From Zingiber officinale (lineage: Eukaryota; Streptophyta; Magnoliopsida; Zingiberales; Zingiberaceae), in the NCBI RefSeq assembly GCF_018446385.1, contig NC_055987.1, positions 11,493,705-11,557,704 on the forward strand: a stretch of DNA of 64,000 bases, in the 5' to 3' direction. Numbering within the stretch: the first letter of the stretch is position 1; the number at the start of each line of letters is the position of its first letter. The translations under genes and the position numbers were made by a program. Shown here piece by piece: positions 13,484 through 50,878 of the stretch. A model generated the notes under the pieces. It did not search any database. It was not told the DNA's origin and was given only the letters and a program-made list of their open reading frames with translations.

Positions 13484-13527
13484 TCGCTCTTCGTTGGATC
13501 AACACCCGAGGGAGCACGAGCTAGAGA

Positions 13528-23767: not shown

Positions 23768-24592
23768 TTAAGACGAGGGTAGTATCGTCATTTGAGGCGC
23801 TACTAGCTCGGGGAGGAAGTCGCCTGCGTCGAACTCGGCGAATTCCTCGTCCGCCGCCTGATGCTCCCCGACCGGGAGATAGAGCTCGGGAAAGTGGAGT
23901 GGAGGGTCGACGCTGAGGCCGAAGGCGTCGACGTTGCTGAAGCTGAGGAAGTCGAAAGGGGTGGGGTCCGAGCCGTAGCGGAGGACGGAGGTAGGGGAGG
24001 AGAAGGGGTTGTCGGAGGAGTCATCCCGAGCGGAGGAGGAGTTGCTGCTGTCGGTGGAGGAGGGGGGAATTTTGTGGTAGGAGAAGTTGGTGACGGCTTT
24101 GCCGCCTCTGATCTTGACGGCGGCGGCGTCGTACACGGCGGCGGCTTCCTCTGCCGTGTCGAAGGTCCCGAGCCAGAGCCGTTTCCCTCGCGAAGGATCG
24201 CGGATCTCCGCTGCCCACCGGCCCCACGGCCGCTGCCGGACGCCGCGGAACCTCTTCTGTCCGGACTCATCCGTCCCCGCCTCGCGAGGAAGCTCGGGCG
24301 TCGGTGACCGGCGAGGGTGGGGCCGGACGCCCGCCTCGATCGCTATCTCTTGGACGTGCCTCTTAATCCGACGACGGGGAGTAGCCAGGACACTATCCTC
24401 CCCCTCGTCGCTGGAGGAATCGGTGGCGTCTGCGTCGGTGCAGCGTATGCGAACGACCCTCCTCCGGCGTCTACTCCCTCCCACCGCTGGGACTGTCTTC
24501 CTGGTGGAAGTGATGTGCTCGGAGAACTTGACCGGAGCATCACGAGCGGCGGCCGGACTGCCCTTCCAGAGGGCAACAGGCGGCAGATTCAT
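23768..24592 (-). CDS. Cytokinin response factor-type AP2/ERF transcription factor (ERF group VI)
   Basis: Intact single-exon gene of 274 codons. Residues ~21-63 form the CRF region: [27 protein letters not shown]. Residues 113-170 form one AP2/ERF DNA-binding domain, [20 protein letters not shown] ... [12 protein letters not shown] ... GKAVTNF, with the residues that contact GCC-box-like DNA in this family present. SPTSVL at 199-204 is the short C-terminal motif, a possible MAP-kinase site, seen in CRFs. The C terminus is acidic, as in activation domains. CRF proteins act in the nucleus, downstream of cytokinin two-component signalling and in development and stress responses. Which CRF this is cannot be decided here. 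The coding region is GC-rich against AT-rich flanks, as in many monocot ERFs. Two uORFs precede the start codon. Confidence 0.95.
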
Positions 24593-24636
24593 CGCTCAGA
24601 GCCACAGATCTGGCCGCCGAAGACCCGCAATTTCAT
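24589..24636 (-). promoter_or_regulatory. uORF2 of the CRF gene, overlapping the main start codon
   Basis: ATG at 24636-24634 opens a 15-codon frame ([15 protein letters not shown]). Its TGA (24591-24589) overlaps the main ATG (24592-24590) as ATGA. If the leader is transcribed from upstream of 24656, ribosomes would have to terminate and reinitiate, or scan past this ATG. This arrangement would limit CRF translation. The transcription start is not visible, so this is inference. Confidence 0.6.
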
Positions 24637-28532: not shown

Positions 28533-28724
28533 CTATTGAGAGTTTTTGCTGGATCCTGGTGGCAAAAAGGGCTCCTTCCATCCGAACTCATATTTCGGAT
28601 ATGGTGCGGTTCACTTCTCAGGCTTGCCGAAATTTAGATCGATCGGGTCATAAGCCAGAGCTTCGTCTAGTGTGTGTGCCTAAAAGCGGTCTGTTAAAAC
28701 TCTGTCCAGCCTCAGTTTCATGGG
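28533..28724 (-). pseudogene. YCF54 (LCAA) pseudogene: Ycf54 pseudogene, last exon
   Basis: On the minus strand, after ccacag (a good 3' splice site), the reading is MKLRLDRVLTDRF, stop, AHTLDEALAYDPIDLNFGKP, EK, stop, TAPYPKYEFGWKEPFLPP, ending at TAG 28535-28533. This is the conserved C-terminal part of plant Ycf54 proteins. Ycf54 works in the plastid with the Mg-protoporphyrin IX monomethyl ester oxidative cyclase in chlorophyll biosynthesis. Two in-frame stops replace residues expected to be Glu (TAG) and Trp (TGA). The order of conserved blocks is otherwise kept. The upstream exons are 6-13 kb to the right on the same strand. Confidence 0.85.
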
Positions 28725-30120
28725 CCTGTGGAAGTCATTGAAATAACTTTTCATTGTTCTTGAAATCTCTTGTTATGTTAAGCTCATAATGCATAGTAAC
28801 AGATATCCAATAAATTGTCCAAAATTCAAAGAATCAATGGTACAAATGTAGTGTTCTTGGAAAATTTTATGTAGATAGAAGAAGCTCTGCTTAAAGAATT
28901 CCAAATCTTAGATAGAAACAGGAGATGGCTCAACACGTTTCCAAAATCTACCTTGTAGGTAAAGATTTTTGACAAAGTCACAAACAGCAGAGTTTCCTGA
29001 GTAATCTCAACAAAAGACACTTTCGCTATCAGTAACTAAAGTAAACTTAATCATACTTCCACTTTTCTGTGACAATCTTTGGGAAGTGGAGGCTTAGGGT
29101 TGAGAATCAAGAGGCCATACACAATGGTTATGAACCAAACGGTTGAATTGATATTTGATAGTACATTGAACAGCTCGTCAAGTCGAACAATTTCTCTTCT
29201 TCTATGCATCCCTCTGATTTTACCTGTAGTAAGCTACAACCAGAAATTTGATTCCTCTCTTCTCTCTCCCTATTCAAGACAACAAAAGTATATAACCATA
29301 AAAACATCAACTTTTTATCGAACCACATAACAAAGTTTCCAAAATACCCATGATCCGACGTAAACATCTTACCACAATGACACAGCGACAGAAATTCACC
29401 CCGAGGATGGTCAGAAATCTCATCACGATGTGGAGACAAAAATTCATCCTAGCATCAAGAACGATGACGTCGAGTAGACCTTTTCCTAGATTTTTTCCCG
29501 TAACATAGAGATTCCATGTGGAGAATAACAAACATCAAAGGGTTCACCGAGAGGCCTGGTGAGACCACTTCGATGCCTAATTATAAGTTAGCATGGAGTT
29601 TCAATAGAGATAAAGCGAAGAAACGATGAGAAAATGTAGTAAAGTAGATGATCATAGAACATATGAGATGATAGTATAATCGAATCCGAGAGCATAATAG
29701 AGCCTCCAAGATAGCACCCTGGAACCCCCCCGACGAGTCTATTGGATATATGTGAATGGAGAAGAGGTGGAAGAGGGAAGAAACTCCATTGTGAATGAGA
29801 CTTTAATCCCACATTGGGAGTTTTAAAATATTTTGGTTGGTTTATATTGATTCACATGCTTTGATGATGTGAACAAATGCATGGGGAGAGACTCTCTCCC
29901 AAGTGTGGGTGCGTAGAGGGGGGCAAATCCAAGGTCTGGATTGCACTGAACTAAGTTGACTCGTCTGCGAGCATGACTTGTGCGCGCCGAAGGTAGGACC
30001 GGTCGGGGCAAAATTTGCCTAAGTGGAACAACCAATATTTTTTCATGTAAACCATTTTGCTGCTTGTGTAAACGTTGGCGTTTGACAGCTGGCGAATAAT
30101 GATCATTAAACGATCATTAG
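28725..30120. other. Former Ycf54 intron or inserted DNA, unassigned
   Basis: Minus-strand frames of 64-103 codons occur but are not recognisable. At about 29800 the phrase ttaatcccacattggga occurs, a wording common at the ends of small plant retroelements. I see no complete element. Confidence 0.35.
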
Positions 30121-30359
30121 CGCTGCGACCACAGGCAAAAGGTCACCTATGTTCCCCTTCTCCTCTGTCGTGCATCTCTTGCTCGACGGAGAGCTCGTGA
30201 TAGCAGTCGGGTACCTCTCAGTTCGCCGTGACCATCAGTGTTTGGTGGGAATCATAATTCACCGTTGTATCCTAGGAAACAGACGACCTGAGGAAACCTC
30301 AAAGCACAGCCGGAGGTGGGGCGAATCTGTTTCAAGAAAACTGCGTTCATCGCGGACCT

Positions 30360-30990
30360 CAGTTCGCTCGGTCGTAAGTCCTCTTGCCCGGCCGCTCATT
30401 CAGTCTACTTGGCTGAAGACTCGCTCGCCCGGGAGGTCTCGTGTCGGGACGTTCACTTCACTCGCCCGCCCGACCACTTCATCCACTTGGGCTGCTAGCT
30501 CGCTCGGTCGCTCGCCCAGTTCGCTTGGTCACTCGCCTAGTTCGCTCGGTCACTCGTTCACTCGTTCGGTCGTTCGACCGCTTGGCCTCAAACTCGATCG
30601 GCTTTTTCATCTGGTCGGCTGCATGCCCGTCCGATCGTTCACTCATTCGGTCGTTCAACTACTTGGTCGCTCGCCTAGTTCGCTCGGTCACTCATTCACT
30701 CGCTCGATCGTTCGACAGCTCGGCCTCTAACTTGGTCGGCCACGTTCGACCGCACGCCCATCCGGCCATTCACTCGCTCTGTCGTTCGACCGCTCGGCCC
30801 TCTGTTCACTCGGCTGCTCCGCCCGTCCAGTCGCAGCTTGCTCGTTCTACTCGCCCGGCAGCTCACTTGGATCACTCGACCTCTCTCCCTTTAGGTCGCC
30901 CTGCCATCCACTGTAAGGCTAACTGCACACTCAACCTGTATACCCGTTCAACCAATCTACTGCTTGCCCGCTCGACCCTTCAGTTCGCTC
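30360..30990. repeat. CTCG-rich degenerate minisatellite
   Basis: Variants of gctcggtcactcgttcactc and ggtcgttcgaccgctcggcc recur over about 600 bp, including a longer period of roughly 130-150 bp (ctcgcctagttcgctcggtc at about 30532 and 30671). It keeps frames open by composition only. The wording resembles the gypsy LTR at 61966-62865, so it may be part of a related LTR. Confidence 0.65.
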
Positions 30991-31040
30991 AAACTTTTTT
31001 GCTTGAAGTCAGAGCTCAGTCTACACTCAACAATTAGCAG

Positions 31041-31600
31041 AAACCAACCTCTGTTGGCCGTCTGAAATTATCTGCTTAGGTCATCTCTACAGAAAAGTTG
31101 AATTTAATTTTGACAAAATCCCAAATATCTCTGGCAGATTGTTTTCTCCAACAGAGTCTCCTCCCCTTATCTTATAGGAAGAAGTCCAAGAGACTCACCC
31201 TTAAAGAGTCATTAAAGAGACATTAAAGGATGTGTTTGCAACCACCCTATCCTTTAATGTTAGTAAATGTCGCATGCTAAAAACTCGGAAGGTCGGTAGT
31301 TCGACGATTCAACTAGCTGGAAGGTCGATCAGTCTGGAGGTCAGGAAGATCAACAACTCAGTGGGTCAGCAAATCGGACAGGCATCCCCGATCTCCGGAG
31401 ATTATTGATATGCTACATGGAGGCTATGTTGACCAAGTCTTAAAGAGCGCCACATGGTCCCTGTATTGACTGAACCTTGACCATGCCACATGACTTCCCT
31501 GTTGACTAGGCCAAGAACCCGCCATATGTTCCCTTACCTCCGTATCAACCCAAATCACGTATCATAGTTTAAAAATTATTAAATCACAAACTCAATTTCA
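31041..31600. mobile_element. Probable gypsy LTR fragment
   Basis: The text (gaaggtcggtagttcgac, ggaaggtcgatcagtctgg, gttgaccaagtcttaaag) resembles the ggtcggtcgg-rich LTR of the gypsy element at 61966. No LTR ends, primer site or coding region are seen, so this is tentative. Confidence 0.35.
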
Positions 31601-31813
31601 TTTTTGTCTTTCCAGTTGACTGTTATAATTGTAGCAGCTGAATGATTTGTGTTAAAAAAATTATTGCTCTCAATATAGTAGGTTAAATTGATATTTAAGG
31701 GAATGAATATAATCAGGAGAACGAACACATAGGATTTGGTTTCATGTCATTCCAAGCTCTCTAGGCCCGAACTGACTAATGATGACCTAGAGAGCTTATA
31801 ATGAATCTAATTA

Positions 31814-32229
31814 GGATTGCAGATGGGCCAACCCAAGCTCAAGCTCGAGAAAATTAAAGAGGCTCAAGCTCAAGCTCGAGTGAGTTTCTGAATTTGAGCT
31901 CGGCTCAGGCTCGAAAATAGTGAATTTAAATGTAAAAACAAGTGCACACAAACCCCATTTGAACCTTCAACCTCTAACAACCATATGAACTACTCTAACC
32001 ACAAACACCTTCTCAACTTATTACTTAACATTAAAGTAGTAATTATTTTAAATATTAAAATATTAAATTAGCCGAGCTCGAACAAGCTCGACGAGCCTTC
32101 GAGCTAGTATTAAATGGGTCCGAGATCGGCTTGAATAGTAAACGACCTGGCTCGAGCTCGGTCAACTCCGTGCTCGAGTCGAGCTTTGATCGAGCTACTC
32201 AAGCGGCTTGACTCATTTACACCCCTATT
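31814..32229. mobile_element. hAT-like MITE rich in gagctcg motifs
   Basis: The left end taggattgcagatgggcc and the reverse complement of the right end taggggtgtaaatgagtc align as imperfect terminal repeats. The arms are full of caagctcgagc and gagctcggctcg variants that can pair. The end taggggtgtaaatgag is common in plant hAT-derived repeats. I cannot see an exact 8-bp target duplication, which fits an old insertion. Confidence 0.55.
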
Positions 32230-32393
32230 ATAAATGCTCTCAAACATCAATTTGACCTACTATATTGAAAGTAGTATTTTTTTATGAATGTGCCTAAAAA
32301 TGTAATTCATGTTAAAAAATCACTGCTCTCATATTTTGGATCAAATTGATGTTTTAGGAATTGGATATAATCATAAGAACTAGACGAATTCAT

Positions 32394-33963
32394 TGTTGGT
32401 GCAATATCCCTAGGTCAAGGTTGACATGGTTGACTAAGCTTGAGTTGACTCAAGCTTGAGTCTTGATGTTTAAGTTTCAATATTTGACAATATGTGGAGA
32501 TTGCATATGCAATCGTCCGATTGGGGAAATTGTTGGAGCAATTCCCCTCTGGTCAAGGTTTGACTAGTTTGATATGAAGAAGAGTCAAGTAGGTCAAAGA
32601 GTTGACCGAATACTTGACTGAGAAAGTCCTAACTGGAGGTTAGGCAAGGGGAAATCCTGGTGAGTGAAGCCAAGTGAAAGACCTAGTGAGTGAAGTTAGG
32701 CCGTGGAAAAATCCTAGTGAGTGAAGATAGGTGAAAGTCCTGGTGAGTGAAGCTAGAAAGATGGAAAGTCCTGGTGAGTGAAGCCAGACAGATGAAAAGT
32801 CCTAGTGAGTGAAGCTAGGCAGATGGAAAGATCTGGTGAGTGAAGCCAGACACATGGAAATCTAGGTGGGTCAAGGTTGACCGAACACATGGTGTTGGGA
32901 AGTCCAAGTAGGTCACGGAGGACCGGACACTTGACACAAGACGATAAGTCCAAGTGGGTCAAGAATGACCGGACATTTGACACGAGGAGTAAAGTCCAAG
33001 TGGGTCAAAGGATTGACTGAACACTTGGTGAAGAAGTCCCAGCAGGTCAAGGTTGACCGGATGCTAGGCATGAGGAGTCCCAACAGATCATAGTTGATCA
33101 GATGTTGGATTTGGGGACCCTTGAGCTTGATGTGAGCAAGTCAAGGGTGGTCAATCGATCAACCAATCGATTGGACCGAAGCCTAATCGATCAGTCAATC
33201 GATTGGGAGAATGCTGCGATAAACAACAGCCCAATCGATCGGTCGATCGATTGGGGGTGTTTTATCGTGCAAACAAAACGATCCCCAATCGATCAGCCGA
33301 TCGATTGGGCACTGCCAATCGATTCGTTGATCGATTGAGATCAGTTTTCTCGTGCAGCTGCAAGAGCACAGAAAAAAGCTGAATCGATCAGCCGATCGAT
33401 TCAGCCTCCCCAATCGATCAGCCGATCGATTGGGATGTGACTGTTGCGCAGGTTAAAGTCGTTGGCGAGCGAGTTCTTCGTTACTTCTTCGCGAGCTCCA
33501 TCTCGATCATTAGGCGTTCTTCTCCACCGAGCTCACACACACACACACACACACCAGATCTTGGAGGCTTAGAGAGGAGTGTTGTTGCACTTCCAAACAA
33601 GTCAAGAGATGTATTCAAGCTAGAAGAAGAGCAAGCTAGGGTTTCTGCATTGTAAATCTTATAAGATTTGCTATTGTATTAGCTTGTATTTCGTTCTTCT
33701 TGTATATCTTATTGTGTGAGTCTTGTACGAGGTTTCTCTACCTCCGGTAGTTACCGAGGAGTGTTTTTATTAGTGAAGTGTGTGTCGCGTGTGGATCCTT
33801 GGATTAGTCACCTCTTTTTGAGGTGGATACCAAGTAAATCTACGTGTTAACATGAGTCTTGTTTCAAGTTTTTTCCGCTGCATCTCAACAACAACGAAGC
33901 AAGCATACGGAGCACAATGAGCTATTCACCCCCCTCCCCCTCTAGCATCAATCGACCCTAACA
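32394..33963 (+). mobile_element. Solo LTR A2, relative of elements A1 and A3
   Basis: The 1570-bp sequence begins tgttggtgcaatatccc and ends atcgaccctaaca, with ttcat directly on both sides (32389-32393 and 33964-33968). No internal region is present, so it is a solo LTR left by recombination between the two LTRs of a full element. It holds decayed 30-bp minisatellite units (32650-32840), a palindrome array of the type aatcgatcagccgatcgatt (33150-33435), a (ca)n run at 33538-33553 and the end cacccccctccccctctagc. Confidence 0.9.
33150..33435 (+). repeat. Palindrome array of A2 (caatcgatc / gatcgattg)
   Basis: Five to six inverted pairs such as ccaatcgatcagccgatcg then attggg occupy the LTR position where A1 has tgatcggtc / gaccgatca and A3 has tggatcgatc / gatcgatcca. 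The arms differ between elements, but the inverted symmetry is kept. Confidence 0.85.
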
Positions 33964-34766
33964 TTCATAAGACTTGGTTTCACGCCATTTCGATATCTCT
34001 AGATCCATCAATCGATTTTGACTGAAAGAACCTAAAGAATTTCAGCCAAAATCGATTAATGAACCTAGAGAACTCAGAATGACATGAAACTAGATCTTAT
34101 GTGTTCTCCTGATTATATCCATGCCCTTAAACATCAATTTGATCCAATATATTAAGAGTAATGATTTTTTGATCACGAATGTGTCCGAAAAATTTAATCA
34201 ATATATTGAGTTAAATTGATATTTAAGAGCATGGATATAATCATAAAAAATATACGAGCTCATACGACCTAGTTTCACGTCATTCCGAGCCCTCTAGGTC
34301 TATCAACCTATTTTGACTAAATAAACTTAAAGACTTTCGGCCAAAATCGGTTGATGGACATAGAGAGCTTGGAATAATGTGAAAGTAGGTCATATGAGCT
34401 TGTCTAGTTCTAATGATTATATTCATGCCCTCAAATATCAATTTGATCATCCATGTTTCGACTAAATCGACTGCTAGACCTAGAAAGCTCGGAATGACAA
34501 TGAAATCAAATTCTATGTGTTCGTCTAATTCTCTTAATTATATCCATATCATCAAACATCATTTGACTCACTATATTGAGAGCAATGTTTTTTTTAATAC
34601 GAATTAGTCATTTTTTAAAAAAAATTAATCTATTCGACTATTATAATTGTAACAATCGACTGAGAAAGTAAAAATAGAATTGAGTACGTGAATTGATAAT
34701 TTAGAAACTAAGTATGTGATTTGATTATTTTAAAAACTTTTTTACATCATCAATAAAAAGATGTAG

Positions 34767-35525
34767 AAACATTCCTATACTGGGACCTTTAACCTTTCTA
34801 AAAGGCAAGCAGATGAGACGTGCAATTATACAAAGATGAATGTAAATGAATAACAGCTAAACCATTGAAAAAGCAAGCATAATTGTCATCCATGGTCCAT
34901 CTGTGGAGACGAGCTACAGCCGGTCGGTTTAGTCGCTTTGTAATGCTAGGAAACTTGTCTAAGAATTTGGGCTCAACAACAAGCCAGAAATCCTGCTCCC
35001 TGCTAAGCTCCCCAAAGTTTCAACTCATCTCAAACAATAACTCTTTGAAATGTTCCTCCTCATCAAGCATGAATTTTGCATTGGCCACTACAAAGTAATA
35101 CTTCCTTGTGTTTCCCCTATAGTTTGATTCTCATCAAAACAAAAAATATATATAAAAAATAATTCTTCTCATTTGCTCATCTGAAATATGTCAGATCTGT
35201 ATATGAAATCCTTTAACAAGCAGTTTCAGATTGCACTATCTGAATGCCATGGGACAGGCATGCACCTTAGTTATGTTCTTCTCATATTATCCAGCTAATA
35301 TAAAATACTTAAATGTTTGTACAAGTAATTATCTTCTAATATTATTCAAGAACCAGAGTTTAACAAGCACATAAAGATTCATCTTTCAACCAAGGGAAAA
35401 AACTGAGGCATCTTGCTTAAAAGCCAGAGCTGTCAACAAATTGCTACAATTGTTGAGATGAACTAAACAATGAAACACGAAAATCTGAAACCTGTCATCT
35501 GCGCATCAACCTTCTCATACTGTTA
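34767..35525 (-). pseudogene. YCF54 (LCAA) pseudogene: Ycf54 pseudogene segment, copy A (central exon and intron)
   Basis: On the minus strand the exon (about 35116-34885), after a ctatag splice-site-like sequence, reads RKYYFVVANAKFMLDEEEHF then KELLFE, a stop, NFGELSREQDFWLVVEPKFL and DKFPSITKRLNRPAVA. This is the conserved core of plant Ycf54. The frame then shifts; the next part (VSTDGPW) is readable one frame over, where intact proteins have a VSTNG-like segment. The stop and frameshift make it non-functional. The rest of the segment, up to 35525, is former intron. The whole ~760-bp block has a second copy to the right (copy B), and the two share the stop codon. Confidence 0.9.
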
Positions 35526-35529
35526 TTTG

Positions 35530-36467
35530 TTTGTAATTCACCCTAATTTAACTCGGGGTTGCTCACATCAAAAAGGGGGAGATTGTTAGTACCCCAAGGT
35601 AGTTTTGATGTGATCAACCAAGTCAGGTTAGGTTATGTTGTGGTTTAACCTTTGTGTCTAAGTGTGCAGGAACTTAAGAGCACAGGAAGTCGAGCGAAAG
35701 ACGCAGCTAGTGAGAAGGATGGCACGGGAGAGAGTCGACGAGCTCGGTGCGTTCGAGGGATGAGGTGCTATGGAAGAGTATGTGGGTGCACGAGAAGGAG
35801 GCGCACGACATTTCCGACGGACGAGAAGCCGGAGCGGAAGGTTACTCGAGAAGGTCAGAAAATGGGTTCAGGTGAGTTCCTATTTCGGATGGCTGAAATC
35901 ATCCAAGTAAGTGGAACTGGAACGAAAGATCCAAACCTAAGCGAGCGGAACTGGAACAGAATTCCTGAACCAAAAAGTCAACTGGAAGTTGACTTTATAG
36001 GTCCGAGTGATCGGAATCAAAACTTCATCATTTCGCAACGTGGTGTGATTCGTTGTGACAGGGATAAAATTCTATGCCCCTTCAGACGCCTGGACCCCTT
36101 CCAGGCGCTTAGACACCTTATAGACGTTCCGACCAGGCCTATAAATACAGTTCTGATCCTAGATGATCAGAACAATAATTGTAATTGATTCCTCTTGAGT
36201 TTTGTTCTATAATTGAATGTTTCAACGGTTATAAGAGATTTTTCCGCCTGAAGGAGATTATTTAGTGAGTTTCAACTTTCTTGAATTAGCAATTCCCTTA
36301 TTGTAAACCAAGTAACCCTTTTGTGTCTCTTCTTTTTCAATCTTTTATCATTGTTTTTTGTATGCAGGTATTAGACTAATAAAGTTGTAAAGTTCGAGAA
36401 GAGCATTTGTTTATTTTTACTGTGCAGGTTATTCACTTCTCTCTAGTCGGTCGCCGAAGGACCATCA
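35530..36467 (+). mobile_element. LTR fragment B2 with polypurine tract, between the two Ycf54 copies
   Basis: About 50 bp of internal sequence and the purine tract tcaaaaagggggagat (35568-35583) precede an LTR (35584-36467) that begins tgttagtacccc and matches the B1 3' LTR at 1764-3346 without its internal duplication and MITE. TATA-like tataaata lies at 36140-36147. An open frame of 178 codons (35652-36188) is incidental. The element is truncated at its 5' side. Confidence 0.85.
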
Positions 36468-36925
36468 TAAACATTCCAACTCTGGGACCTTTAACCTTTC
36501 TAAAAGGCAAAAAGATGAGAAGAGCAATTATGCCAAGATGAATGTAATTGAAATGAATAACAACTAAACCATTAAAAAAGCAAGAATAATTATGTCATCT
36601 AAGTTCCATCTGTGCAGACGAGCTACAACCGGTCGGTTTAGTTGCTCTGTAATGCTAGGAAACTTGTCTAAGAATTTGGGCTCAACAACAATCTAGAAAT
36701 CCTGCTCCCTGCTAAGCTCCCCAAAATTTCAGCTCATTTCAAACAATAACTCTTTGAAATGTCCCTCCTCATCAAGCATGAATTTTTCATTGGCCACTAC
36801 AAAGTAATACTTCCTGGGTTTTCCTACCGTCTGATTCTCATCAAAACAAAAAATATAAAAAAACATAATTCTTCTCATTTACACATCTGAAATTTGTCAG
36901 ATCTGTATATGAAATCCTTTATCAA
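36468..36925 (-). pseudogene. YCF54 (LCAA) pseudogene: Ycf54 pseudogene segment, copy B, exon part
   Basis: It matches copy A base by base with about 10 percent differences. The exon (about 36834-36600, minus) reads RKYYFVVANEKFMLDEEGHF, KELLFE, the same stop as copy A, NFGELSREQDF, a new stop in place of Trp, IVVEPKFLDKFPSIT. The shared first stop suggests the gene was already broken before it was duplicated. The intron part is split by later insertions and resumes at 41150-41290 and 41665-41757. Confidence 0.88.
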
Positions 36926-37419
36926 TCTGACCCGGTCCGAAAATTGAGTATATGAGCGATCGACGAGGAAACGAAAATGTTGACAAAGGAAGGGTCTAGA
37001 GTTGGAAACCACGGACTTGCGCATGTCACAAAAAGAGCAAACAAGAACATCAAGGTGAGAACCGGGGAGGGGATTCTTACACAGACACTCTAACGCTCAA
37101 ATCAGAAGAGTAGTTCCAATGAAAAATGTGGAAAAAGATGAACAATAGAACAATATTGTAGATGTGTGTGCGTCCATACCTGACCAATGGAGAGCATCTT
37201 CTTTTTATACCGCCTCTCATAACCTCCGCAATTATAAGGCGTCAGAAAATGTCCGGTGTCAGAACATGTCGAGTAGTGGAGGATGTACGACAACAATCTT
37301 CTAAGCAAAGGAAGGTTCCATTGTGTGTATATGTCAGAGTAGTAGAATATTTTCTAATGAGTAGTCATTATTCTCTGACAAGTGGTTGTGATTTTTAGAC
37401 AATTCTGTCTCCGAGAGGG

Positions 37420-37987
37420 AGTCCGATCAGCTTGAAGCTGACCGGGTTTAGATTGGGAGTCATGCCCATGTGGGGTGGGGAGCCAAGTCTTGTCGAAGTC
37501 CGATCGGCCTAGGCCAATAGAGTTTATGTTAGGAGTCATGCCCCTTAAAAGTGGGAAGCTGAACCCCGGGGGTTCGACCGACTCTGAGACTGATCGAGAT
37601 TATGCTGGGAGTCATGCCTATGAGAAGTGAGGAGATGAGCCGTGGAGGTTCGACCGACTTTAGGGCCGATCGGGTGTATGCTGAAAGTCATGCCCATGAG
37701 AAGTGGGAAACTGAGCCACAGAGATTCGTCTAGATCTGGAGTCGATCGGGTGTAAACTGGAAACCATGCCCATGAGAAGTGGGGAGCTAAGCCCCGGGAG
37801 TTCAATCAGTTCTAGAGCCGATTAGGTGTATGTTGGGAGTCATGCCTATGAGAAGTGAGAAGTTGAGCACCGGAGGTCCGACCGACTATTGGACCAATTG
37901 GGCGTATGCTAGGAGTCATTCCCACGAGAAGTGGGGAGCTGAGCCCAAGAGTCCGATCGGCTCTGGGGCCGATTGAGCATATGCTCA
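37420..37987. repeat. Tandem repeat, ~76-bp period, seven copies (plus ~2.5 at 40605-40790)
   Basis: ggagtcatgcccatgagaag or variants recur at about 37459, 37531, 37609, 37686, 37763, 37839 and 37914, joined by gaccgactctrgggccgatc. The array resumes at 40605 after solo LTR D, so that LTR inserted into a repeat unit. Confidence 0.88.
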
Positions 37988-40604
37988 TGTTAGAGTGTAT
38001 ACTAAAAATCTAGTTTTTTGTAAATATTTATTTTGAAATAAAGAATCACATTGGTCAAATGTCTACATTTATATGCTAAGTGTAGTTGTTCAATTAGTTT
38101 GTATTGTAGATAACATGGTGTGTGGTGTCATACATAGAAAATCATGTTATCAATTCCTTATAAATTATAAACAGTAGCTCACGACTAAGATGGATAGGAA
38201 CAAACCATTGGAATAGTCGTAGTGTAATTTGGTATTAGTTTATCTTAACTATAAAATTATATTAGTACACTCTGAGTGTATTGAGCAAGACCATTTAAGG
38301 TAAGTTTTTTTTATACTGACTGCATAAAAGAACAAGACCTTTGTTATTATGGAAGTGTGTGCTCTTAATCATGATATAATAACAAGCACATATACTCAAT
38401 ATTCATTTCTTTAATTTATCAAAGGGTGTGATTTAGTTCGATAAATCAATAGACCCGATAAGTTGAGAAATGATATTATTTATATGGTGTGTTGTTGATT
38501 ATAGAATGAAACTGTGCCCTAGTAATGTAGGTTGATGATGTCCCCAAGAGGAGCTTATAAGAATTGTCAGGTAAACCATGCAGGTGGACTTAGTCCGATA
38601 TGACGATAAGGTTGAGTGGTACTGCTCTTGGAGCTATATATTAATTAAGTGAGTTGTCAATAACTCATTTAATTAGTGGACATTCTATATCTTAAACACA
38701 GGGAGATTAACACACTCATGATAAGAAGAAGCTCATATAGTAATATGAAATTTGTGCGGTAGTTTAATAATAACTCTTTAGTGGTATGAGTTATTATTGA
38801 TGAACTCGAGTTGGGTGTTCGGGGCGAACACGGGAAGCTCAAATTCATCGGGAGACCAAAACTAATTCCTCCTCTCAGTCCCTGTCGTAGCCTCTTATTT
38901 ATAAAGTCTTATACCCACCTATACCCACCTTTTTACCCATCCTTAGGTGGCCGGCCAAGCCAAGCTTGGAGCCCAAGCAAGAGCCGACCAATACATGGCT
39001 TGGATGGGTTGAAGTGTGGTCGGCCTAGCTTGAACCCAAGCTTAGGTGGTCGGCCACAATAAATTAAAAGGATTTTATTTTTTAAATTCTTTTCTTATGT
39101 GGAAGCCATGGTTTTAAAAGAGTTTAAAATTTAAATCTTTCCTTTTATAAGTTTTCTACAAAAAATTAAGAGAAAGGTTTGATATCTTTCCTTATTTGTA
39201 GTTAAAAGAAAGATTTTATTTTTTGATAAAACTTTTCTTTTTTTGTAACCATCCTCATGATTTTAAAAGAGAGTTTTAAAATTAAATCTTTCCTTTTATA
39301 GCTTTCTACAAAAGATTAAGAGAAATATTTGATATATTTCCTTATTTGTAGTTAAAAGGAAGATTTTAATTTTAGAGAAAACTTTCCTTTTTGTAAATCA
39401 TCCACATGTTTTAATAGAGAGATTTTAATTTATAAAAGTTTCATTTTATAACCAACCATGAAGGAAATTTTTAAAAGAGAAATTTTTATTTTAAAATTTC
39501 GGGAAACAAATAAGGAAGTTTTAATCTTGTGTTTAAAATTTTCCTTCCTTGGAGGATTTGATATGGCCGACCACATCCATAGAAGAAAATGAAATTTTTT
39601 ATCAATTAAATTTTCCTTTCTATGACAAGGAAAATAAGGAAGTTTTTATTAAAACTTTCCTTATTTGTCAAGACCAAGAAATATAAAAGAGAGGGTAGAG
39701 GTGTCTCACTTTACAACAAGATATCCTCTAGTATTCCTCTCTTCCTTGGTGGTGGTCGACCCTCTCTTCTTCCTCTTCCCCTATTCTTCTTCTTAAGTGG
39801 CCGGCGGCATCCTCTTCTTGGAGAGATCTTGGTGGCCGGATTTTGCTTTGAGAAGAATAAGAGATAGGAGGCATTGTTTCCTAGCATCCCTTGGAGCTTG
39901 GTTGATGGGCGAAGTTCTCCATCTCTAGGAGATTGTTGGTGGTTGAAACTTGCAAGGAGAAGAAGGAGGCTTGGGTGGATTCTCGTCTCGGTAGATCGTC
40001 GTCCACACGACGTCTGAGATAAAAGAGGAATACGATATAAGATCGTGAGGTTTATTAGCTACAAAGAAAGGTATAACTAGTTGTCTTGTTCCCCATCATA
40101 CTAGTTTTCTTTGTATGGATTTTGAAATACCAAACACAAGAGGCTAACGATTATAGGTTTCGAATTTACAATTCGAGTTTGCGTTTCTTTTGTTTTTTCG
40201 ATCTTGTGATTCGATTGTACTTAATGGTTAAACCTAGGGTTACTATAAGGAGATTAAATATTGAATTTCGTTGAAAAGCTTTGTCTAGGAAGTGGTGGAT
40301 GCTCCCATAACCAAGAAGGTCTAGTGTCTCGCCTTGTTTAACCTGGAAGCCGATCTCTGAAATAAATATTTAATCAAATTTGTAACATAGGTGAATTTGG
40401 ATTAATAATGTTAAGTATCGTTTGCGATCCAAGTCTAAACTTTTAAGAACAGATAAATTGAATTTGGAATCAATAATGTTAAGTTCTGTTTGCGATTCCA
40501 AATTTAATTTCTAAATAACACAATTTTTTGTTAGGAATAGTTCAGTACTTGTACAAAATTTTTTTACAGGGGAATCAGTATGATATTCCGAGTAGCAACC
40601 AACA
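37988..40604 (+). mobile_element. Solo LTR D (2617 bp), Copia-like
   Basis: It begins tgttagagtgtatacta and ends agcaaccaaca. The flanks gctca (37983-37987) and gctga (40605-40609) are a 5-bp target duplication with one change, and the interrupted tandem repeat around it supports gctga as the original. A TATA box tataaaa lies at 39682-39688. No gag or pol is present. The tail at 40275-40370 resembles internal DNA of B1 (1233-1320). Confidence 0.8.
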
Positions 40605-40828
40605 GCTGAGACCATGCCCATGAAAAGTAGAGAGCTCGGATCGACTCTGGGGCCAATCAGGTATATTTTGAGCCGGAGTCATGCCCATGAGAAATGAGGA
40701 GCTGAGCCTTAAAGATCCAATTGACTCTAGGGCCAATCGAATGTATATTAGAAGTTATGCTCATGAAGAATGAACCCTAAGGAGCTGAGCCCCGTTAAAA
40801 ATGATCCCTTCAACTATACACATTCTAA

Positions 40829-41053
40829 GGGGGTGTTTGGTTGATGGGTTTGGGAATGAGGGAATGAAATGACAGTAAAAGATTGTGTTTAGATTGTGGA
40901 TTTGAGAATGACATTTTGGGAATGATTACTAGATTTATGGGAATCAACCAAACTCATATAACTTGATGAGTTTCATTTCCATTCCTATTCTCATTTCATC
41001 CTACTATCAAACTCATATCCATAGTCAATTCCATCATTTAACCAAATGCTTCC
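40829..41053. mobile_element. PIF/Harbinger (Tourist-like) MITE
   Basis: The 225-bp element has imperfect terminal repeats gggggtgtttggttgatgg and (right end reversed) ggaagcatttggttaaatg, flanked by taa on both sides (40826-40828 and 41054-41056). A 3-bp TAA/TTA target duplication with GGG..TGTTTGGTT ends is typical of Tourist-like MITEs. Confidence 0.85.
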
Positions 41054-41290
41054 TAATTTTTACTGTCACCTTATCTTAATTTGAATTATCATATTATTTT
41101 AACTACCCATCCTACGTTATCTTTGGACCACCCTCCACGCGCCATATCCAAAGCAGTTTCAGATTGCACTATCTGAATGCCATGGGACAGGCATTCACCT
41201 TGAGTTATGTTCTCATATTATCCAGCTAATCTAATATACTTATGTCGGTCCAAGTAATTATCTTCTAATAGTATTCAGGAACTAGAGTTT

Positions 41291-41664
41291 AAGAGCACCT
41301 ATATTAATTATCCTATTCAAAAATTTTATCATAAATTTTGAATTGGTAACTAAAAAATCTTTACATCAGCTATTTTATCCATTCTCTAAATTTAGATTTG
41401 ATGAATAATGATTCTTTAAATTTAGGAAATGAAATCACTACTTTAAAAATAAAGTAATATTTTTTTAATCTCTCTTCTTCCACTCCATCTCTCTCTTTCC
41501 ACTCATTTTATAAATATAATAATAAAAAAGAAAAGAAAATAATAAAAAATTAAGAATGATAGAAATTTTAAAATAATTGATATAGTGTGTAGTGAAAAAT
41601 GATTATCTAAATTTAATAAAATAAATTATTTATTTTAAATTTTAAATATTGTAATAGAGAAATT
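41291..41664. mobile_element. AT-rich insertion in Ycf54 copy B
   Basis: Copy A has about 70 different bases between gagtttaa and tgtcaacaaattgc where copy B has about 370 bp of very AT-rich DNA. It is probably a small transposon, but I cannot find convincing terminal repeats. Confidence 0.45.
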
Positions 41665-41812
41665 GAGATGTCAACAAATTGCTACAATGTTGAGATGAAG
41701 CTAAAACACGAAAATATGAAACCTGTCATCTGCGCATCAACCTTTTCATACAGTTAAAAAAAAAAAGCTTTGAGACCAATGGTGATTAACCTACCGACAG
41801 AAGTGAAGGAGA

Positions 41813-42105
41813 AGTGTACCTCTTGGAAAGGGTCAGGCGAGCCAGCCTCATCGGAGTCCACGGCCACAGCTCTGACAGCAGGAACATAGGAAAGGCCGCG
41901 CCTTTCTTGGCGAAAGTGGCGACTGCAGTCTCCTCGCCGAGTGTTTTGAGGCGGGCGGAGTTGGGAGGGAGGAGAAGCGGAAGCCGCCGAGGGGATGAGG
42001 GAAGATTGGCCCGTTTGGGATAGTCCACGAGTGTGCCGAAGAGGCTAAGGCCGAGGAAAGGAAGAGGCTGGGGAAGAAACGAGAATTTTTGTAAGTTGAC
42101 GACAT
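41813..42105 (-). pseudogene. YCF54 (LCAA) pseudogene: Probable first exon of the Ycf54 gene (transit peptide)
   Basis: ATG at 42105 opens MSSTYKNSRFFPSLFLSSAL and continues with a Ser/Arg/Pro-rich, acid-poor stretch like a chloroplast transit peptide. Later the frame reading VPAVRAVAVDSDEAGSPDPF, QE and then gtacac (a possible 5' splice site at about 41813) looks like the mature N terminus, but it is in another frame. A frameshift within the exon is therefore likely. Position, strand and role fit the Ycf54 central exon to the left, but an independent gene cannot be excluded. Confidence 0.55.
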
Positions 42106-43889: not shown

Positions 43890-45236
43890 TGTTAGGACCA
43901 AAAGTAGCTAGAGGGGGGGGGGGTGGGCGGTGCTTCGTTGCTTGTTTCTTCGAAGTGATGCGCAGCGGAAAACAAAGAAACAAACTACAACAATGCTAAC
44001 AATAGGATTTTACTTGGTATCCACCTCACAAGAGGTGACTAGTCCAAGGATCCACGCACACACACACCTCCACTAATAAACACTCCTTTTCGGTAACTAC
44101 CGAAGGCGGAGAAGCCCTACAAGACTCTCAATACAAGTAGAAGAAAGGGTAGTAAAGAATAAGCAAAAGCTTACAAGAGATGCAGTAAAAACCCTAGCTT
44201 CTTCTTCTTCTCGTTGCAACTCGCCTCTTGACTTGGATGAACCTCCAAGAACCTTCAAGAACTGGCGGTGAGGAGCTTAGAGAGTGCTGGGGAGGAGCTG
44301 TGATGAATCTAGAATGAATTGGTGAAGTTCTACCGCAGCCATCGAACGCCTGCAGCTATAAACGATGTCAACGATCGGATCCCGATCGATTCGAATGTTC
44401 CCAATCGATCGGGGAGGCTTTGGATCGATCCACGGATCGATCCAGAGCGCCTCTGTGCTCTGGAAACGCGCCTGGATCGATCCACGGATCGATCCAGCGC
44501 TTATCGCGCGAAGCAGCCGCGTCCCAATCGGGTTTCCTGATCGAAACCCAGCTTCCCGATCGATTGAGATTGAACTCGATCGATCGACAACTATCGGATC
44601 GATCCACCGATCGATCCAGCACTTGGTTTTGTCCAAAACCAAGTCCTAAACCTCCCAAACCAACATCCGGTCAACCTCGACCTGTTGGTATGTCACGCCT
44701 AGCATCTAGTCACCCTCGACCTGTCAGACTCCCTTACCAAGTGTCCGGTCAATCCTTCGATCCACTTGAACTTTCCTTGTGCAAGTATCCGGTCAACCCT
44801 TCGACCTACTTGGACTTTTCTTTCACGCCAAGTATCCATCAATCCTTTGACCTACTGACTTCTCAACACCGGACGTCCGATCATCCTCGATCCATCTGGA
44901 TTTTCCCGGCTTCACTCATCGTGACTTTCACCTAGCTTTACTCACTAGGGTTTTCATCCGCCTAGCTTCACCACTAGGACTTTCACCGGCTCACTCACCG
45001 GGATTTCCATCCGCCTAGCTTCACCCACTAGACTTCCCCGCTTCACTCACCGGGACTTTTCTTCCGCCTGGCTTCACTCACCAGGACTTTCATTTTGCCT
45101 CACATCCAGGATTCCGATCAAGTATCCAAACAACCTTGACCTACTGACTCTTCTTCAATCAATATCTTATCTCAAACATCTAAACCCAAACCAAGACTCA
45201 CGCTTGGTCAACTTGACCGAGGGATATGCACCAACA
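43890..45236 (-). mobile_element. 3' LTR of A3 (1347 bp)
   Basis: It matches 49405-50878, but from 44690 to 45236 it shows an unusual density of one- to several-base deletions and of CG where its partner has TG or CTGG (for example ccgg against cctgg, ctcgacc against cttgacc). The palindrome array (44380-44635) also differs in unit number and content from that of the other LTR. Confidence 0.88.
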
Positions 45237-47599
45237 ATCTCCCCTTTGATGTTCGACAATACCACAATAACACTTACAATCTCATATGTAGTTAGGCTAA
45301 TCCCATAGCCTCCTTCTTCATGCCACTAGGTAACGAAGCATAAATTAAGCTCTTCATTCTCCCCAAGAGGGCACTCCCTCTAGGTAACGAAAGCCTAACT
45401 TACTCCCTTTCTGAGTCCTTTCATTCTCCCCTATGACCTTCCCATAGTAAAGGACTAAGCTTAACCATACATTCTCCCCCTATTGGCACACATCAACCCA
45501 TCGTTGGACACACATCAACCTATGCTCCAATTCTGGGCACACTTCAACAAATCCATTTGTTGAAGACTCTCCCCCTGAAGAGTTGCTCATCGTTGTTCAC
45601 AACATCACTCGTTGTGATCAACACGATAATGAAGGTCTCATACCCTTCATTTATCCTTAACTTCTCCCTCAATGTAGACAACTACCCAACCTTGAGCATT
45701 ATCTACCACTCGAGTGTCCACTTGAAATAATGAGGGTATCCACTCCCCATTTCAAGTTTAAATGCTCAACCTTGAGCAAGTCCACAATAGAAGGTTAACC
45801 ACCTTCCAAGGTTCATGAAAAATAATTTTCATGTCTTTAAAGAGTCCCTCCCCCTAAAGACATGGTGGTAACTTCTGTCATTGCACCAACAATGACTTGG
45901 AATCCCTAAACCGTTAGGAAACCCAAATTTAGAAGTTTTGAGGTTCAAATATTCAAAATTTGAAACAACCTCAACCTAAACTTCTACTTAGTCTTCGTTA
46001 ACCAATCCATCCTTGTTTTCAACATGAAAACACCCTTTGTATGTATACAAATGTATTTAAGGGGTTTGGAATGGTTACCTAGACTAAAATAGGTTCAAAG
46101 ATGCTGAAATCAGGCCTTCCCAGCAAAATCAGCAACTTGGATCGATTGAGTTGGGTTCCAATCGATTGAACCTTTCTCGAATCGATCCATCGATCGATTC
46201 AGACTCCGATCGATCGGTCGATCGATCCAGTGAGTCCCCGCGAATTGGCTTTCAATCGACCCATGGATCGATTCATGGAACTCCAATCGATCCATGGATC
46301 GATCGAGGACTCGATCGAAATTCCATTTCACCAACTTCGAAACCCTAGAAAATTCTACAAAATCAAAAATTATGAAATTTCGTGTAGACATAATTTAGGC
46401 ATACTTAATCATGGAAAATAGCTTTCATGAAAATACATCATATTTTCAAAGATTGACACAAACTTGAAAACTTGCAAAACTTTAGTGTTTTTCTTCAAGT
46501 TCTGTGTTCAACTATTCAATGGTGATTACTATCAAAAGATAGCCTTCACCAAGGTTTTCCAAAATATTTTAAAAACATTTTCAAAACCAATATCCCATCA
46601 TGTTCCTTGGGCATAATGCACATGACTTGTACATTAGCTTTCCCAATGATGGGAAAACACATAACTATGTGTTTTGATGAATTTAAAACTCAAAAGAATG
46701 CACTAAATCAACATCTTGAGCTTTGTTCATCATCCTAACATCTCACTTGTATATAATATGCACTAAAACACATACAAGTCACCTTAGAGGTCTTTGTGAG
46801 ATGTAAAATTTGGTTTTGCCCTATTCTAGGGATCATGCATATCTATCTAGGCATTTTAGAGATATTAGACATCCACCCAGGATGTCACTTGTCAATAAGT
46901 GTCGTTAGATGCCATTTGTCCTTAATTACAAGGAATTAAACTTAATGCATGATTATGTTATGGCATACATCAAAAGAAAATAATTTTCAAAAGAAAATAT
47001 TCTATTGCTACATGATGTATGAATGTCATGACATGGTATTTTTGGATTTTTCATAATAAAACATGAATGCAAAAATAGACATGATGTCATGGCATATGAT
47101 GGGCAAACAATCATGGCAAGATTTAGCATAAATAAAATATACCTAGATTAACTATCTAAGTATCCTTAAAGTCTTAGCTAAACTTACACCTTAAACCTAG
47201 ATTGCCCTAAAGTGCTTCAAGAAAATGCCAAAGCCTAAGTTTGCATTTCTTATTCCCTTGATTAATTTATGCCAATTAAAATAAACATGTCCTCAAATGT
47301 TGGCATATTCCATTTTTCCTCAAGAGTAGCACTTTTAAATTTAAGGCCCGGATTGCCTTAAATTGCCTAAGAACATACCAAAAACCCAACTTGATAGTTC
47401 TTATTAATTTTCCAATATGTGCCATTTAAGATTAAAATCAATTCTTCCACCATTAGGCACATTTTACTCTTTCAAGGAGTAATCAATAATTCCATTTCAT
47501 TTTCAAAGGTTAACAAAAACCTTGAAAATGCTCCTTGAGTGTCAATTTCCTCAAAGTTGGGTTAACTACCCTTCTAATCGGAGTTGACACTCTCTAACC
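45237..47599 (-). mobile_element. Non-coding 3' internal region of A3
   Basis: No coding potential is found. The purine tract lies at 45237-45249 (atctcccctttg on the plus strand). A palindrome cluster at 46135-46320 uses atcgatccat / atggatcgat, matching the A3 LTR type. Much of the wording (cattttcaaggtt, atgtcatgacat) is the reverse of 15000-16600 in A1. Confidence 0.75.
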
Positions 47600-49329
47600 C
47601 ATCTATGGGGTAGAGAAGATGCTCCTAGGAACCCAACACCTATTGGTGCTCCTTGGATGCTCTAGGTACTCACTAGGGATACCTTCCTAGTGACCTTGTT
47701 GGGCTTCTTAGAGGCCTTGGTCACATTTTCTAGGTCAACTCTAGAGATAGCCTCCCTTGTAACCTTGTTCGTGACTTTCTTAGACTTCTTAGAAGTCTTA
47801 GTCACATTTATTGCAAAAATACTCTTAGGGATGACTTCCCTAGTATTTTTGGCTTGACCACTAGACCTAGGGTTTGTTCCATAACTATATGGAACTCTAT
47901 GGTAAGAGGGCACATCCTTCTTAGCCTTTGGTTTGTATCCCAAACCTCTATGGCCATTGGATGGCTTTTGTACCCCTAAACCTAGGTTATGCTCATTTTG
48001 CCCTAATAGGATATTTTCCATCCTTTTTAGGGTCTTTTCCATTTTATCAAGTCTTGACCTCAAGACTTGATTTTCTCTCACTAAGTCCTTAGTATTTGAC
48101 CCATGAGCATTTTTGTTTCTAGGCTTGTATCTAAAATCCTTAGAGTTTACGCCTAGATTTTTACCTACAATCCTAGCCTTAGGTGTAGTAGTTTTAGCAT
48201 GAAAAGCTATATGTTTTTCTTTAACACTATCATGCTTTCTATTTTCATGGTAAATAGCATTAAAATGATATAAATTTGAACTATCATGCTTTTTACCATA
48301 ATGTAGAGGAGTAGGCTCAATAAATGTTACCTTCTTCTTTACCTTAGAGGCTCCCCCTTGACTAGAGCTTCCTCCATGAGCCTTGACCATCTTCTTCCCC
48401 TTGGGGCATTGACTTCGGTAATGCCCTTTTTGTTGACACAAGAAGCACACAATGTGCTCCTTGCTCTTCTTTGTCCCGGGTGGTTCTCTGCTTCTCCTTG
48501 CCAGGTTATTTGCCAGCCCTTCTAGCGGCCCAACGGTCCTCAGTAGTGCCCACTTTCCCTACACTCAAAACATATTATATGATTTTTATTTTTAATGAAC
48601 CATTTATACCTTCTTGTATAGGGATGGCACTTGCTCCTCCATTTGATATTTCTTGAATTTGGAGGTGGCACCATTTTCTTCTTCTTCACTTGACTGTATA
48701 AGCTTCTCCTTCTTCTTGATCCCGTGTCATTGCTCCCCCTCAATCCAGAGGTGGAGGCTTCATCATCTTGAATACGAAACAAGGAGTACGCTCCCTCCTT
48801 GTTCCCTTCTGCATTCCCTCGAGGACGAAGCTTCGATCTCCTCTTCTTGGAGGTTGAGCATCTCAACCCTGAGTCCTCCTCTTGGTCTCGATCCAACGAG
48901 TCGCCTCTTTGGATTCTCCTTGATTTGATTGGAAGGGATCTCATGAATTCTTGCCAATTTGCTCCAAAGCTCCTTGGCATCTTCAAACTCTCCAATTTGT
49001 TCCAAGATGTTGCTTGGCAATAAATTGACCAAAAGCTTGGTCACTTTGTCATTGGCCTCACATCTTTGAATTTGGTCTTTGCTCCACTTGCTCCTTTTGA
49101 GTACTTTGCCCTTGGAATTTGTGGGAGCTTCAAAACCTTCCATGAGAGCAAACCATTGCTCTATCTCCATCATAAGAAAATTTTCGATTCTTGATTTCCA
49201 AGAATCGAAGCTTGTAGATGAATATGGTGGAGCCACCCTTGTGTCAAATCCAAGTCCATCTTGGAATTGCATCTTGAAGTTGAGCTTGATAAAGTCTTGA
49301 ACTTGAAGAATTTGCTCCAACTTCTTCAC
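47600..49329 (-). pseudogene. Copia gag of A3, broken
   Basis: On the minus strand the first frame (49329-48763) includes DGLGFDTRVAPPYSSTSFDS, WKSRIENFLMM and AKELWSKL, the Gag N-terminal pattern. Frame changes follow. The first zinc knuckle begins CFECRESGHY (about 48575) but its last cysteine is lost at a rearranged junction. The second, CFLCQQKGHYRSQCP (about 48447-48403), is intact. A basic region, a coiled coil (VRENQVLRSRLDKMEKTLKR) and a WVPRS end motif near 47620 follow. No Pol is present. The element is non-autonomous and this Gag cannot be made whole. Confidence 0.8.
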
Positions 49330-49388
49330 CCTCTAGCTTTTCTTGTTATGCTTGACCCTTCCGGCGATGATTCCGGTGAAGAGCGGCC

Positions 49389-49404
49389 TTGCTCTGATAC
49401 CACT
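49389..49404 (-). other. Primer-binding site of A3
   Basis: On the minus strand: aagtggtatcagagc, directly after the 5' LTR end ctaaca. Confidence 0.9.
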
Positions 49405-50878
49405 TGTTAGGCCCAAAAGTAGCTAGAGGGGGGGGTGAATAGCTTCGCGTGTGCTCGTCGTGCTTCGTTGCTTGTTTCTTCAAAGTGATGCGCAGCGGAA
49501 TACAAAGAAACAAACTACAACAATGCTAACAATAGGATTTTACTTGGTATCCACCTCACAAGAGGTGACTAGTCCAAGGATCCACGCACACACACACACC
49601 TCCACTAATAAACACTCCTTTTCGGTAACTACCGAAGGCGGAGAAGCCCTACAAGACTCTCAATACAAGTAGAAGAAAGGGTAGTAAAGAATAAGCAAAA
49701 GCTTACAAGAGATGCAGTAAAAACCCTAGCTTCTTCTTCTTCTCGTTGCAACTCGCCTCTTGACTTGGATGAACCTCCAAGAACCTTCAAGAACTGGCGG
49801 TGAGGAGCTTAGAGAGTGCTGGGGAGGAGCTGTGATGAATCTAGAATGAATTGGTGAAGTTCTACCGCAGCCATCGAACGCCTGCAGCTATAAACGATGT
49901 CAACGGTCGGATCCCGATCGATTCGAATGTTCCCAATCGATCGGGGAGGCTTTGGATCGATCCACGGATCGATCCAGAGCGCCTCTGTGCTCTGGATCGA
50001 TCCAGCGCTTATCGCGCGAAGCAGCCGCGTCCCAATCGATCCACTGATCGATTGGGACCTCTGGATCGATCCACGGATCGATCCAGAAGCTTTCTGTTCG
50101 CTGGGACAGGTCTGGATCGATCCACTGATCGATCCAGAGCTTGGATCGATCCAGAGCTTGGATCGATCCACTGATCGATCCAGCACTTGGTTTTTGTCCA
50201 AAATCAAGTCCTAAACCTCCCAAACCAACATCCGGTCAACCTTGACCTGTTGGTATGTCATGCCTAGCATCTAGTCACTCCCTTGACTTGCTAGGACTCC
50301 CTTACCAAGTGTCCGGTCAATCCCTTTGACCCACTTGGACTTTTCTCTGTGCCAAGTATCCGGTCAATCCCTTTGACCTACTTGGACTTTTCTTTCATGC
50401 CAAGTATCCAGTCAATCCTTTGACCTACTTGGACTTCTCAGCACCAGATGTCCGATCATCCTTGATCCATCTGGATTTTCCCTTGCCTGGCTTCACTCAC
50501 CAGGACTTTCACCTAGCTTTACTCACTAGGGTTTTCATCTGCCTAGCTTCACTCACTAGGACTTTCACCTGGCTTCACTCACCAGGATTTCCATCTGCCT
50601 AGCTTCACTCACTAGGACTTCCTTCTGCCTGGCTTCACTCACCAGGACTTCCTTCTGCCTGGCTTCACTCACCAGGACTTTTCTTCTGCCTGACTTCACT
50701 CACCAGGACTTTCATTTTGCCTAACATCCCAGTTAGGACTTCCCAGTCAAGTATCCAGTCAACCTTGACCTACTTGACTCTTCTTCAATCAATATCTTAT
50801 TGTCAAACATCTAAACCCAAACCAAGACTCAGCTTGGTTACTCAGGTCAACCTTGACCTGAGGGATATTGCACCAACA
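49405..50878 (-). mobile_element. 5' LTR of A3 (1474 bp)
   Basis: On the minus strand it runs from tgttggtgcaatatccc at 50878 to cctaaca at 49405. It contains the 30-bp minisatellite (50480-50720) and a palindrome array tggatcgatccactg / atcgatcca (49915-50190). Confidence 0.9.

What the first reader, a model, noticed from the sequence alone, without database searches (positions are those of the whole stretch)
28533..42105. A Ycf54 chlorophyll-biosynthesis gene pulled apart over 13.6 kb by nested insertions
Three recognisable blocks of one protein lie on the minus strand in the correct order. They are a transit-peptide-like first exon (41.8-42.1 kb), the central exon (KYYFVVANAKFML ... EQDFWLVVEPKFLDK) and the last exon (MKLRLDRVL ... 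PYPKYEFGW). Between them lie a B-type LTR, a gypsy LTR, two solo LTRs and MITEs. In-frame stops and frameshifts are present in the central and last exons. Ycf54 is needed for the oxidative cyclase step, so an intact copy should exist elsewhere.
Basis: partly seen in the sequence, partly recalled or inferred. Interest (0 to 1): 0.75.

Follow-up and report, generated by a model that had tools for sequence, protein, structure and literature searches.

The report
Decayed chlorophyll-gene copy in ginger relative
The window holds a broken copy of Ycf54, a gene that plants need to make chlorophyll, apparently still in its ancestral place; it was probably dead before one of its exons was duplicated and before mobile DNA stretched it out, and whether the plant keeps a working copy elsewhere could not be checked.

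Summary
Confirmed: minus-strand pieces of one Ycf54 gene (PF10674) lie in order between 42.1 and 28.5 kb, with stops, frameshifts and retained introns. It is an unprocessed pseudogene in a Zingiberales plant, near Zingiber and Curcuma.

Corrections and additions. (1) Exon 2 is present twice (36.6-36.8 and 34.9-35.1 kb): a tandem copy of part of intron 1, exon 2 and part of intron 2. Both copies share a stop and a 2-bp frame lesion, so the gene was probably dead before the duplication. Copy B lacks the 4.2-kb insertion that splits intron 1 of copy A, so that insertion came later still. (2) An intact AP2/PTI6-like gene lies next downstream on the same strand. A banana gene model fuses Ycf54 and this AP2 gene in the same order, and in 11 of 22 species matched by eye both share a contig. 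The pseudogene therefore appears to sit at the ancestral locus. (3) Two protein searches (best 120 rows each) listed no named ginger-family Ycf54, although Zingiber, Curcuma and host AP2 proteins are in that database.

The genome search for an intact copy did not complete. Most likely a working copy exists elsewhere; replacement or loss in this lineage is not excluded.

The parts
41820..42083 (-). Ycf54 exon 1 remnant (transit-peptide region, ending AVDSDEAGSPDPFQE); two frameshifts in the aligned part; donor GT kept after GAG at 41820; 5' limit inferred by eye
   Evidence: 39 of 70 aligned columns identical to Canna P0001 over 42026-41820
36593..36821 (-). Ycf54 exon 2, copy A: three in-frame stops and one frame lesion in the aligned part
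   Evidence: (56 of 77 identical to Canna), Pfam Ycf54 2.6e-16
34878..35106 (-). Ycf54 exon 2, copy B: one stop and one frame lesion, both shared with copy A; own extra base near the acceptor and no GT at the expected donor (last two by eye)
   Evidence: (65 of 77); Pfam 1.3e-19
28536..28721 (-). Ycf54 exon 3: two in-frame stops
   Evidence: 51 of 62 identical to Canna
34767..35525 (-). duplicated segment, copy B: part of intron 1, exon 2B, part of intron 2
   Evidence: alignments to 41756-41665, 41301-41151 and 36925-36469
36469..36925 (-). segment of copy A matching copy B (end of intron 1, exon 2A, start of intron 2)
   Evidence: 413 of 460 columns identical
36928..41150 (-). 4.2-kb insertion in intron 1 of copy A (TG...CA ends, nested); copy B is contiguous across this point
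   Evidence: flanks GCTT / GATTG against GCTTG in copy B; target-site duplication imperfect
37988..40604 (-). 2617-bp TG...CA LTR-like element inside the 76-bp repeat array, flanks TCAGC / TGAGC (4 of 5)
35530..36467 (+). truncated retroelement-like piece at the junction of the two exon-2 copies (polypurine-tract-like stretch plus LTR-like sequence; limits and copia-like label by eye)
32394..33963 (-). solo LTR in intron 2, TGTTAGG...CCAACA, perfect 5-bp target-site duplication ATGAA
   Evidence: parts of it are 72-76% like the LTRs at 49.4-50.9 kb
23768..24595 (-). intact AP2/PTI6-like gene next downstream; synteny anchor and host marker

Best explanation
[quoted passage not shown] Proposed order: (1) small lesions killed the coding sequence (shared TGA and 2-bp frame lesion in exon 2; read from the comparison of the copies); (2) a segment with exon 2 was copied in tandem, with a retroelement piece at the junction (copies shown; mechanism inferred); (3) LTR- and MITE-like elements inserted into the introns and stretched the remains over 13.6 kb; for the 4.2-kb intron-1 insertion copy B shows that it came after the duplication, for the others the time is not known. 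It makes no Ycf54 protein; the host presumably uses another copy (inferred, not found).
For: Alignments and stops. Introns kept. Three exons as reported for barley Ycf54 (PMC13221752, figure legend). Shared and private lesions. Uninterrupted site in copy B. The pseudogene falls in the Zingiberales clade (97/97) with an end branch of 0.15. At positions conserved in at least 95% of 157 plant proteins, copy A changed 11 of 47, copy B 3 of 47 (the frame-lesion position counted in both) and exon 3 2 of 26, against 0 of 73 in 7 of 8 monocot controls, which are themselves among the 157; the eighth, the fused model P0242, has 4 of 73.
Against: No intact copy was seen in the host: 20 genome-search requests did not complete (last one), and no named ginger-family Ycf54 is among the best 120 rows. 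Over codons 84-158 copy B has no amino-acid-changing codon since the split while copy A has 10 (p = 0.002), which simple neutral decay of both copies does not predict. The same-contig match fails in 11 of 22 species. Assembly error or haplotype mixing at the duplicated exon cannot be excluded from one sequence.
Confidence: 0.9

Rival explanations
1. The ginger lineage no longer uses a classical Ycf54: the ancestral gene died without an intact copy elsewhere, and its cyclase is Ycf54-independent or uses another helper.
For: Pseudogene at the conserved locus; no named Zingiberaceae Ycf54 among 120 of 513 or 120 of 428 listed hits, with candidate lengths of about 80-252 and 160-509 residues by the tool's length rule, although Zingiber officinale, Curcuma longa and host AP2 proteins are in the same database.
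Against: Frameshift ycf54 barley is yellow and lethal (PMC13221752 abstract), and plant and algal cyclases showed an absolute requirement for Ycf54 when expressed in bacteria (PMC7319587 abstract). Absence from a capped listing can be missing annotation; rows below the best 120 and unnamed rows could not be assigned, and only one control gene was looked up. The copies split about 8.8 million years ago by a rough rate, far below the age of the family, so one loss shared by the whole family at this locus is unlikely.
Confidence: 0.12
2. A duplicate (from whole-genome or segmental duplication) stays intact elsewhere, and this is the ordinary loss of one of two copies.
For: Musa carries at least two distinct Ycf54 proteins (P0005/P0262 and P0242), so duplicates arise in the order; Ycf54 is essential in barley.
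Against: No such intact ginger-family copy was listed; a large-scale duplication in Musa is placed after the Musa-Zingiber split (PMC2270835 passages), so Musa's second copy need not be shared.
Confidence: 0.75
3. The two exon-2 copies are an assembly or haplotype artefact: two alleles of one pseudogene placed in tandem.
For: Only one sequence is available; copy A carries insertions that copy B lacks.
Against: Copy B begins sharply inside intron 1 next to a truncated retroelement-like piece, and the copies differ by about 8% (K80 0.079), high for alleles.
Confidence: 0.1
4. A mobile element captured and moved the gene fragments here.
For: Repeat sequence surrounds and interrupts the exons.
Against: All three exons plus intron remains are in order, upstream of the same AP2 gene and on the same strand as in the banana model.
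Confidence: 0.04

Closest known systems
Ycf54 / LCAA / YGL19 (Pfam PF10674), cyclase auxiliary subunit
   Same: Sequence family, three-exon layout as reported for barley, AP2 neighbour as in the banana model
   Different: Stops, frameshifts and altered splice borders; second copy of exon 2; introns with inserted repeats
Unprocessed (duplicated or unitary) plant pseudogenes with nested LTR insertions (general class, from knowledge)
   Same: Introns retained, solo LTR with target-site duplication, changes at conserved codons
   Different: The gene is essential in barley and the dead copy sits at what appears to be the ancestral locus; whether it is unitary is not known

Membership tests
Ycf54 (PF10674) | Profile match above the Pfam gathering score | tested here: met
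   Copies A and B (X at stops) score 60.1 and 70.6 bits, cutoff 25; exon 3 alone gives no hit
Ycf54 (PF10674) | Intact coding frame able to make the protein | tested here: not met
   Frameshifts in exon 1, stops and a frame lesion in both exon 2 copies, two stops in exon 3; so a pseudogene of the family, not a working member
Unprocessed pseudogene | Introns retained, exons in order | tested here: met
Unprocessed pseudogene | Relaxed constraint at conserved codons | tested here: met
   11 of 47 (copy A), 3 of 47 (copy B), 2 of 26 (exon 3) changed, against 0 of 73 in 7 of 8 controls and 4 of 73 in the eighth; strong for copy A, weak for copy B
Unitary pseudogene (no working copy left) | No intact copy in the genome | tested here: inconclusive
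   20 genome-search requests unanswered; best 120 rows hold no named ginger-family copy
Ancestral-locus orthologue | Conserved neighbour, order and strand | tested here: met
   AP2 gene 23.8-24.6 kb; fused banana model in the same order; equal contig length in 11 of 22 species by eye, not in the other 11
Solo LTR (32394-33963) | TG...CA ends with 5-bp target-site duplication | tested here: met
   ATGAA on both sides
Expression / splicing of the remnant | No functional transcript | not testable with these tools
   no RNA data

The most novel reading that the evidence does not exclude
The ginger family makes chlorophyll without a classical Ycf54: the gene died at its ancestral locus in this species, none is annotated in Zingiber or Curcuma, and the cyclase or another protein has taken over. 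That would be an exception to the rule that oxygenic phototrophs need Ycf54.
Probability: 0.1. Interest if true: 0.9.

Novelty: new member of a known kind. Interest (0 to 1): 0.45.

Why it matters
As a pseudogene it is ordinary. It matters because Ycf54 is described as required in oxygenic phototrophs (PMC7319587 abstract; PMC13297055 passages), this dead copy appears to occupy the ancestral locus, and no named ginger-family Ycf54 turned up in the best rows of two searches of a large protein database. One tblastn of public ginger genomes would show either a relocated gene or a natural Ycf54-free plant. The locus also records event order, because the second exon copy preserves an uninterrupted site.

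Tried and rejected
Insertions as the cause of death: disfavoured, because lesions are shared by both exon copies and the large intron-1 insertion is absent from copy B. Gene conversion from A to B as the source of the shared lesions: disfavoured, because A/B differences flank and lie among the lesion sites. Copy B as a working exon after the duplication (suggested by 10 versus 0 changed codons): rejected, because copy B shares the stop and frame lesion and has its own extra base near the acceptor and no GT at the expected donor (by eye); the asymmetry stays unexplained. A base-composition check for faster mutation in copy A showed no consistent direction over the four intron stretches; in the exon 10 sites pointed one way and 5 the other. 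Unnamed rows (lgn, jgi, eukprot) as hidden ginger sequences: none listed exceeds 74% to the pseudogene query or 82% to Canna, against 89% for Musa, but their species is unknown; the four AP2 rows of 75% or more are the window's own, two of Zingiber and one of Curcuma, none from those sources, so those sources say little about ginger. RNA genes: no tRNA, no Rfam match at gathering score. Papers: no held paper has both Ycf54 and Zingiber; 3 hold Ycf54 and ginger, the 2 listed being on a green alga and on chromerids (listing only); the capped listings (20 of 1,067; 20 of 246; 20 of 141; 10 of 6,020) showed no title on Ycf54 loss in this order.
Full report
Observation. An intact Ycf54 from Canna indica (P0001, best database hit, 83% identity to the read-through query) matches four blocks on the minus strand in gene order: exon 1, exon 2 twice, exon 3. 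Frame-aware alignments score 133 to 338, against at most 44 for 30 shuffled proteins per block. Intron remains are kept and the layout fits the three exons reported for barley Ycf54 (PMC13221752, figure legend seen). So the finding is real: an unprocessed Ycf54 pseudogene.

Host. The AP2/PTI6-like gene at 23768-24595 is open for 275 codons from stop to stop and gives a 274-residue protein. Apart from the window's own copy (on a 194-Mb contig) its best hits are Zingiber officinale (82% and 81%) and Curcuma longa (76%), then Canna (65%) and bananas. The host is therefore close to Zingiber and Curcuma but probably neither; its species is not known, and the sister family Costaceae is not excluded.

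Locus. A gene model from a Musa hybrid (P0242, 505 residues) carries Ycf54 at its N-terminus (81% to Canna) and the AP2 protein at its C-terminus (60% to the window's AP2), the same order and orientation as in the window. In Canna the two genes are Cni_G25127 and Cni_G25119, on contigs of the same length. The dead copy is thus most simply the ancestral gene in place, not a transposed fragment.

Duplicated exon and order of events. A segment of part of intron 1, exon 2 and part of intron 2 exists twice: 36925-36469 matches 35219-34767 (413 of 460 columns identical), and intron-1 pieces beside exon 1 (41756-41665 and 41301-41151) match 35525-35427 and 35373-35218. A truncated retroelement-like piece lies at the junction, 36467-35530. 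Both exon copies share the TGA at Canna codon 112, the change at 117 and a 2-bp frame lesion at codon 149, so the lesions most simply predate the duplication. Copy A is split in intron 1 by a 4.2-kb insertion (41150-36928) that copy B lacks; its target-site duplication is imperfect. Divergence of the copies is K80 0.079 over 691 sites. With the Zingiberales rate of 4.5 per 10^9 years (PMC2270835, passages) that is about 8.8 million years, well below the 65 million years given for the Zingiberaceae crown (PMC10648771, passages). The rate is a rough published average; with the other two rates tried the figure is 6.1 or 3.1 million years. The solo LTR in intron 2 has a perfect ATGAA target-site duplication.

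Strength of decay. At positions conserved in at least 95% of 157 plant Ycf54 proteins, copy A has changed 11 of 47, copy B 3 of 47 (the frame-lesion position is counted in both) and exon 3 2 of 26; 7 of 8 monocot controls, themselves among the 157, changed 0 of 73 and the fused model P0242 4 of 73. Over codons 84-158, 10 codons changed amino acid in copy A and 0 in copy B since the split, with 3 synonymous differences (binomial p = 0.002). Copy B is nevertheless broken: it shares the stop and frame lesion, has one base too many near its acceptor and no GT at the expected donor (the last two by eye). I have no good account of this imbalance.

Is there a working copy? The direct test, PF10674 in the window's own genome, could not be run: 20 requests to search that genome did not complete (first, last; the first three used a DNA pattern). 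The indirect test is odd. Searches (120 of 513 rows listed; 120 of 428) show no named Zingiberaceae Ycf54, although Zingiber, Curcuma and host AP2 proteins are in the same database. A working ginger copy would be expected to rank near Canna and Musa. Missing annotation, rows below the best 120 and unnamed rows remain possible, and there was no protein search left for a second control gene. Against a real loss stand the lethal barley knock-out (PMC13221752, abstract) and the absolute requirement for Ycf54 in recombinant plant and algal cyclases (PMC7319587, abstract). I rate an intact copy elsewhere at about 0.75 and a Ycf54-free ginger lineage at about 0.1.

Verdict. The core is an ordinary pseudogene, now better resolved. 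The unusual part is its place at the apparent ancestral locus together with the unexplained absence of named ginger-family Ycf54 from the listed hits, which one public tblastn would settle.

Noticed in passing
window 60278-60760 (+): Stop-to-stop ORF with a strong match to dephospho-CoA kinase (CoaE, Pfam E 3.2e-21), probably one exon of a host gene.
   Followed up: no
window 11510-18594: LTR retroelement with 2-kb LTRs 94% identical by BLAST, K80 0.013 without gaps, ORF with a zinc-knuckle match: a young insertion.
   Followed up: partly
window 43890-50878: Related element in the other orientation, LTRs 84% identical by BLAST, K80 0.038 without gaps; zinc-knuckle ORF and a copia-type gag match just below Pfam's cutoff (25.2 against 27 bits). 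Parts of the solo LTR in Ycf54 intron 2 are 72-76% like its LTRs.
   Followed up: partly
window 36593-36821 versus 34878-35106: 10 amino-acid-changing codons in exon-2 copy A and none in copy B since their split over codons 84-158, although both are broken.
   Followed up: partly
window 37438-37985 and 40675-40766: 76-bp tandem repeat array split by a nested 2617-bp LTR-like element.
   Followed up: partly
proteins P0126 and P0143: Canna and Musa balbisiana models fuse an AP2 protein with a thioredoxin domain, hinting at a thioredoxin gene beside AP2; tblastn of both models against the window matched only the AP2 gene at E up to 0.01.
   Followed up: partly
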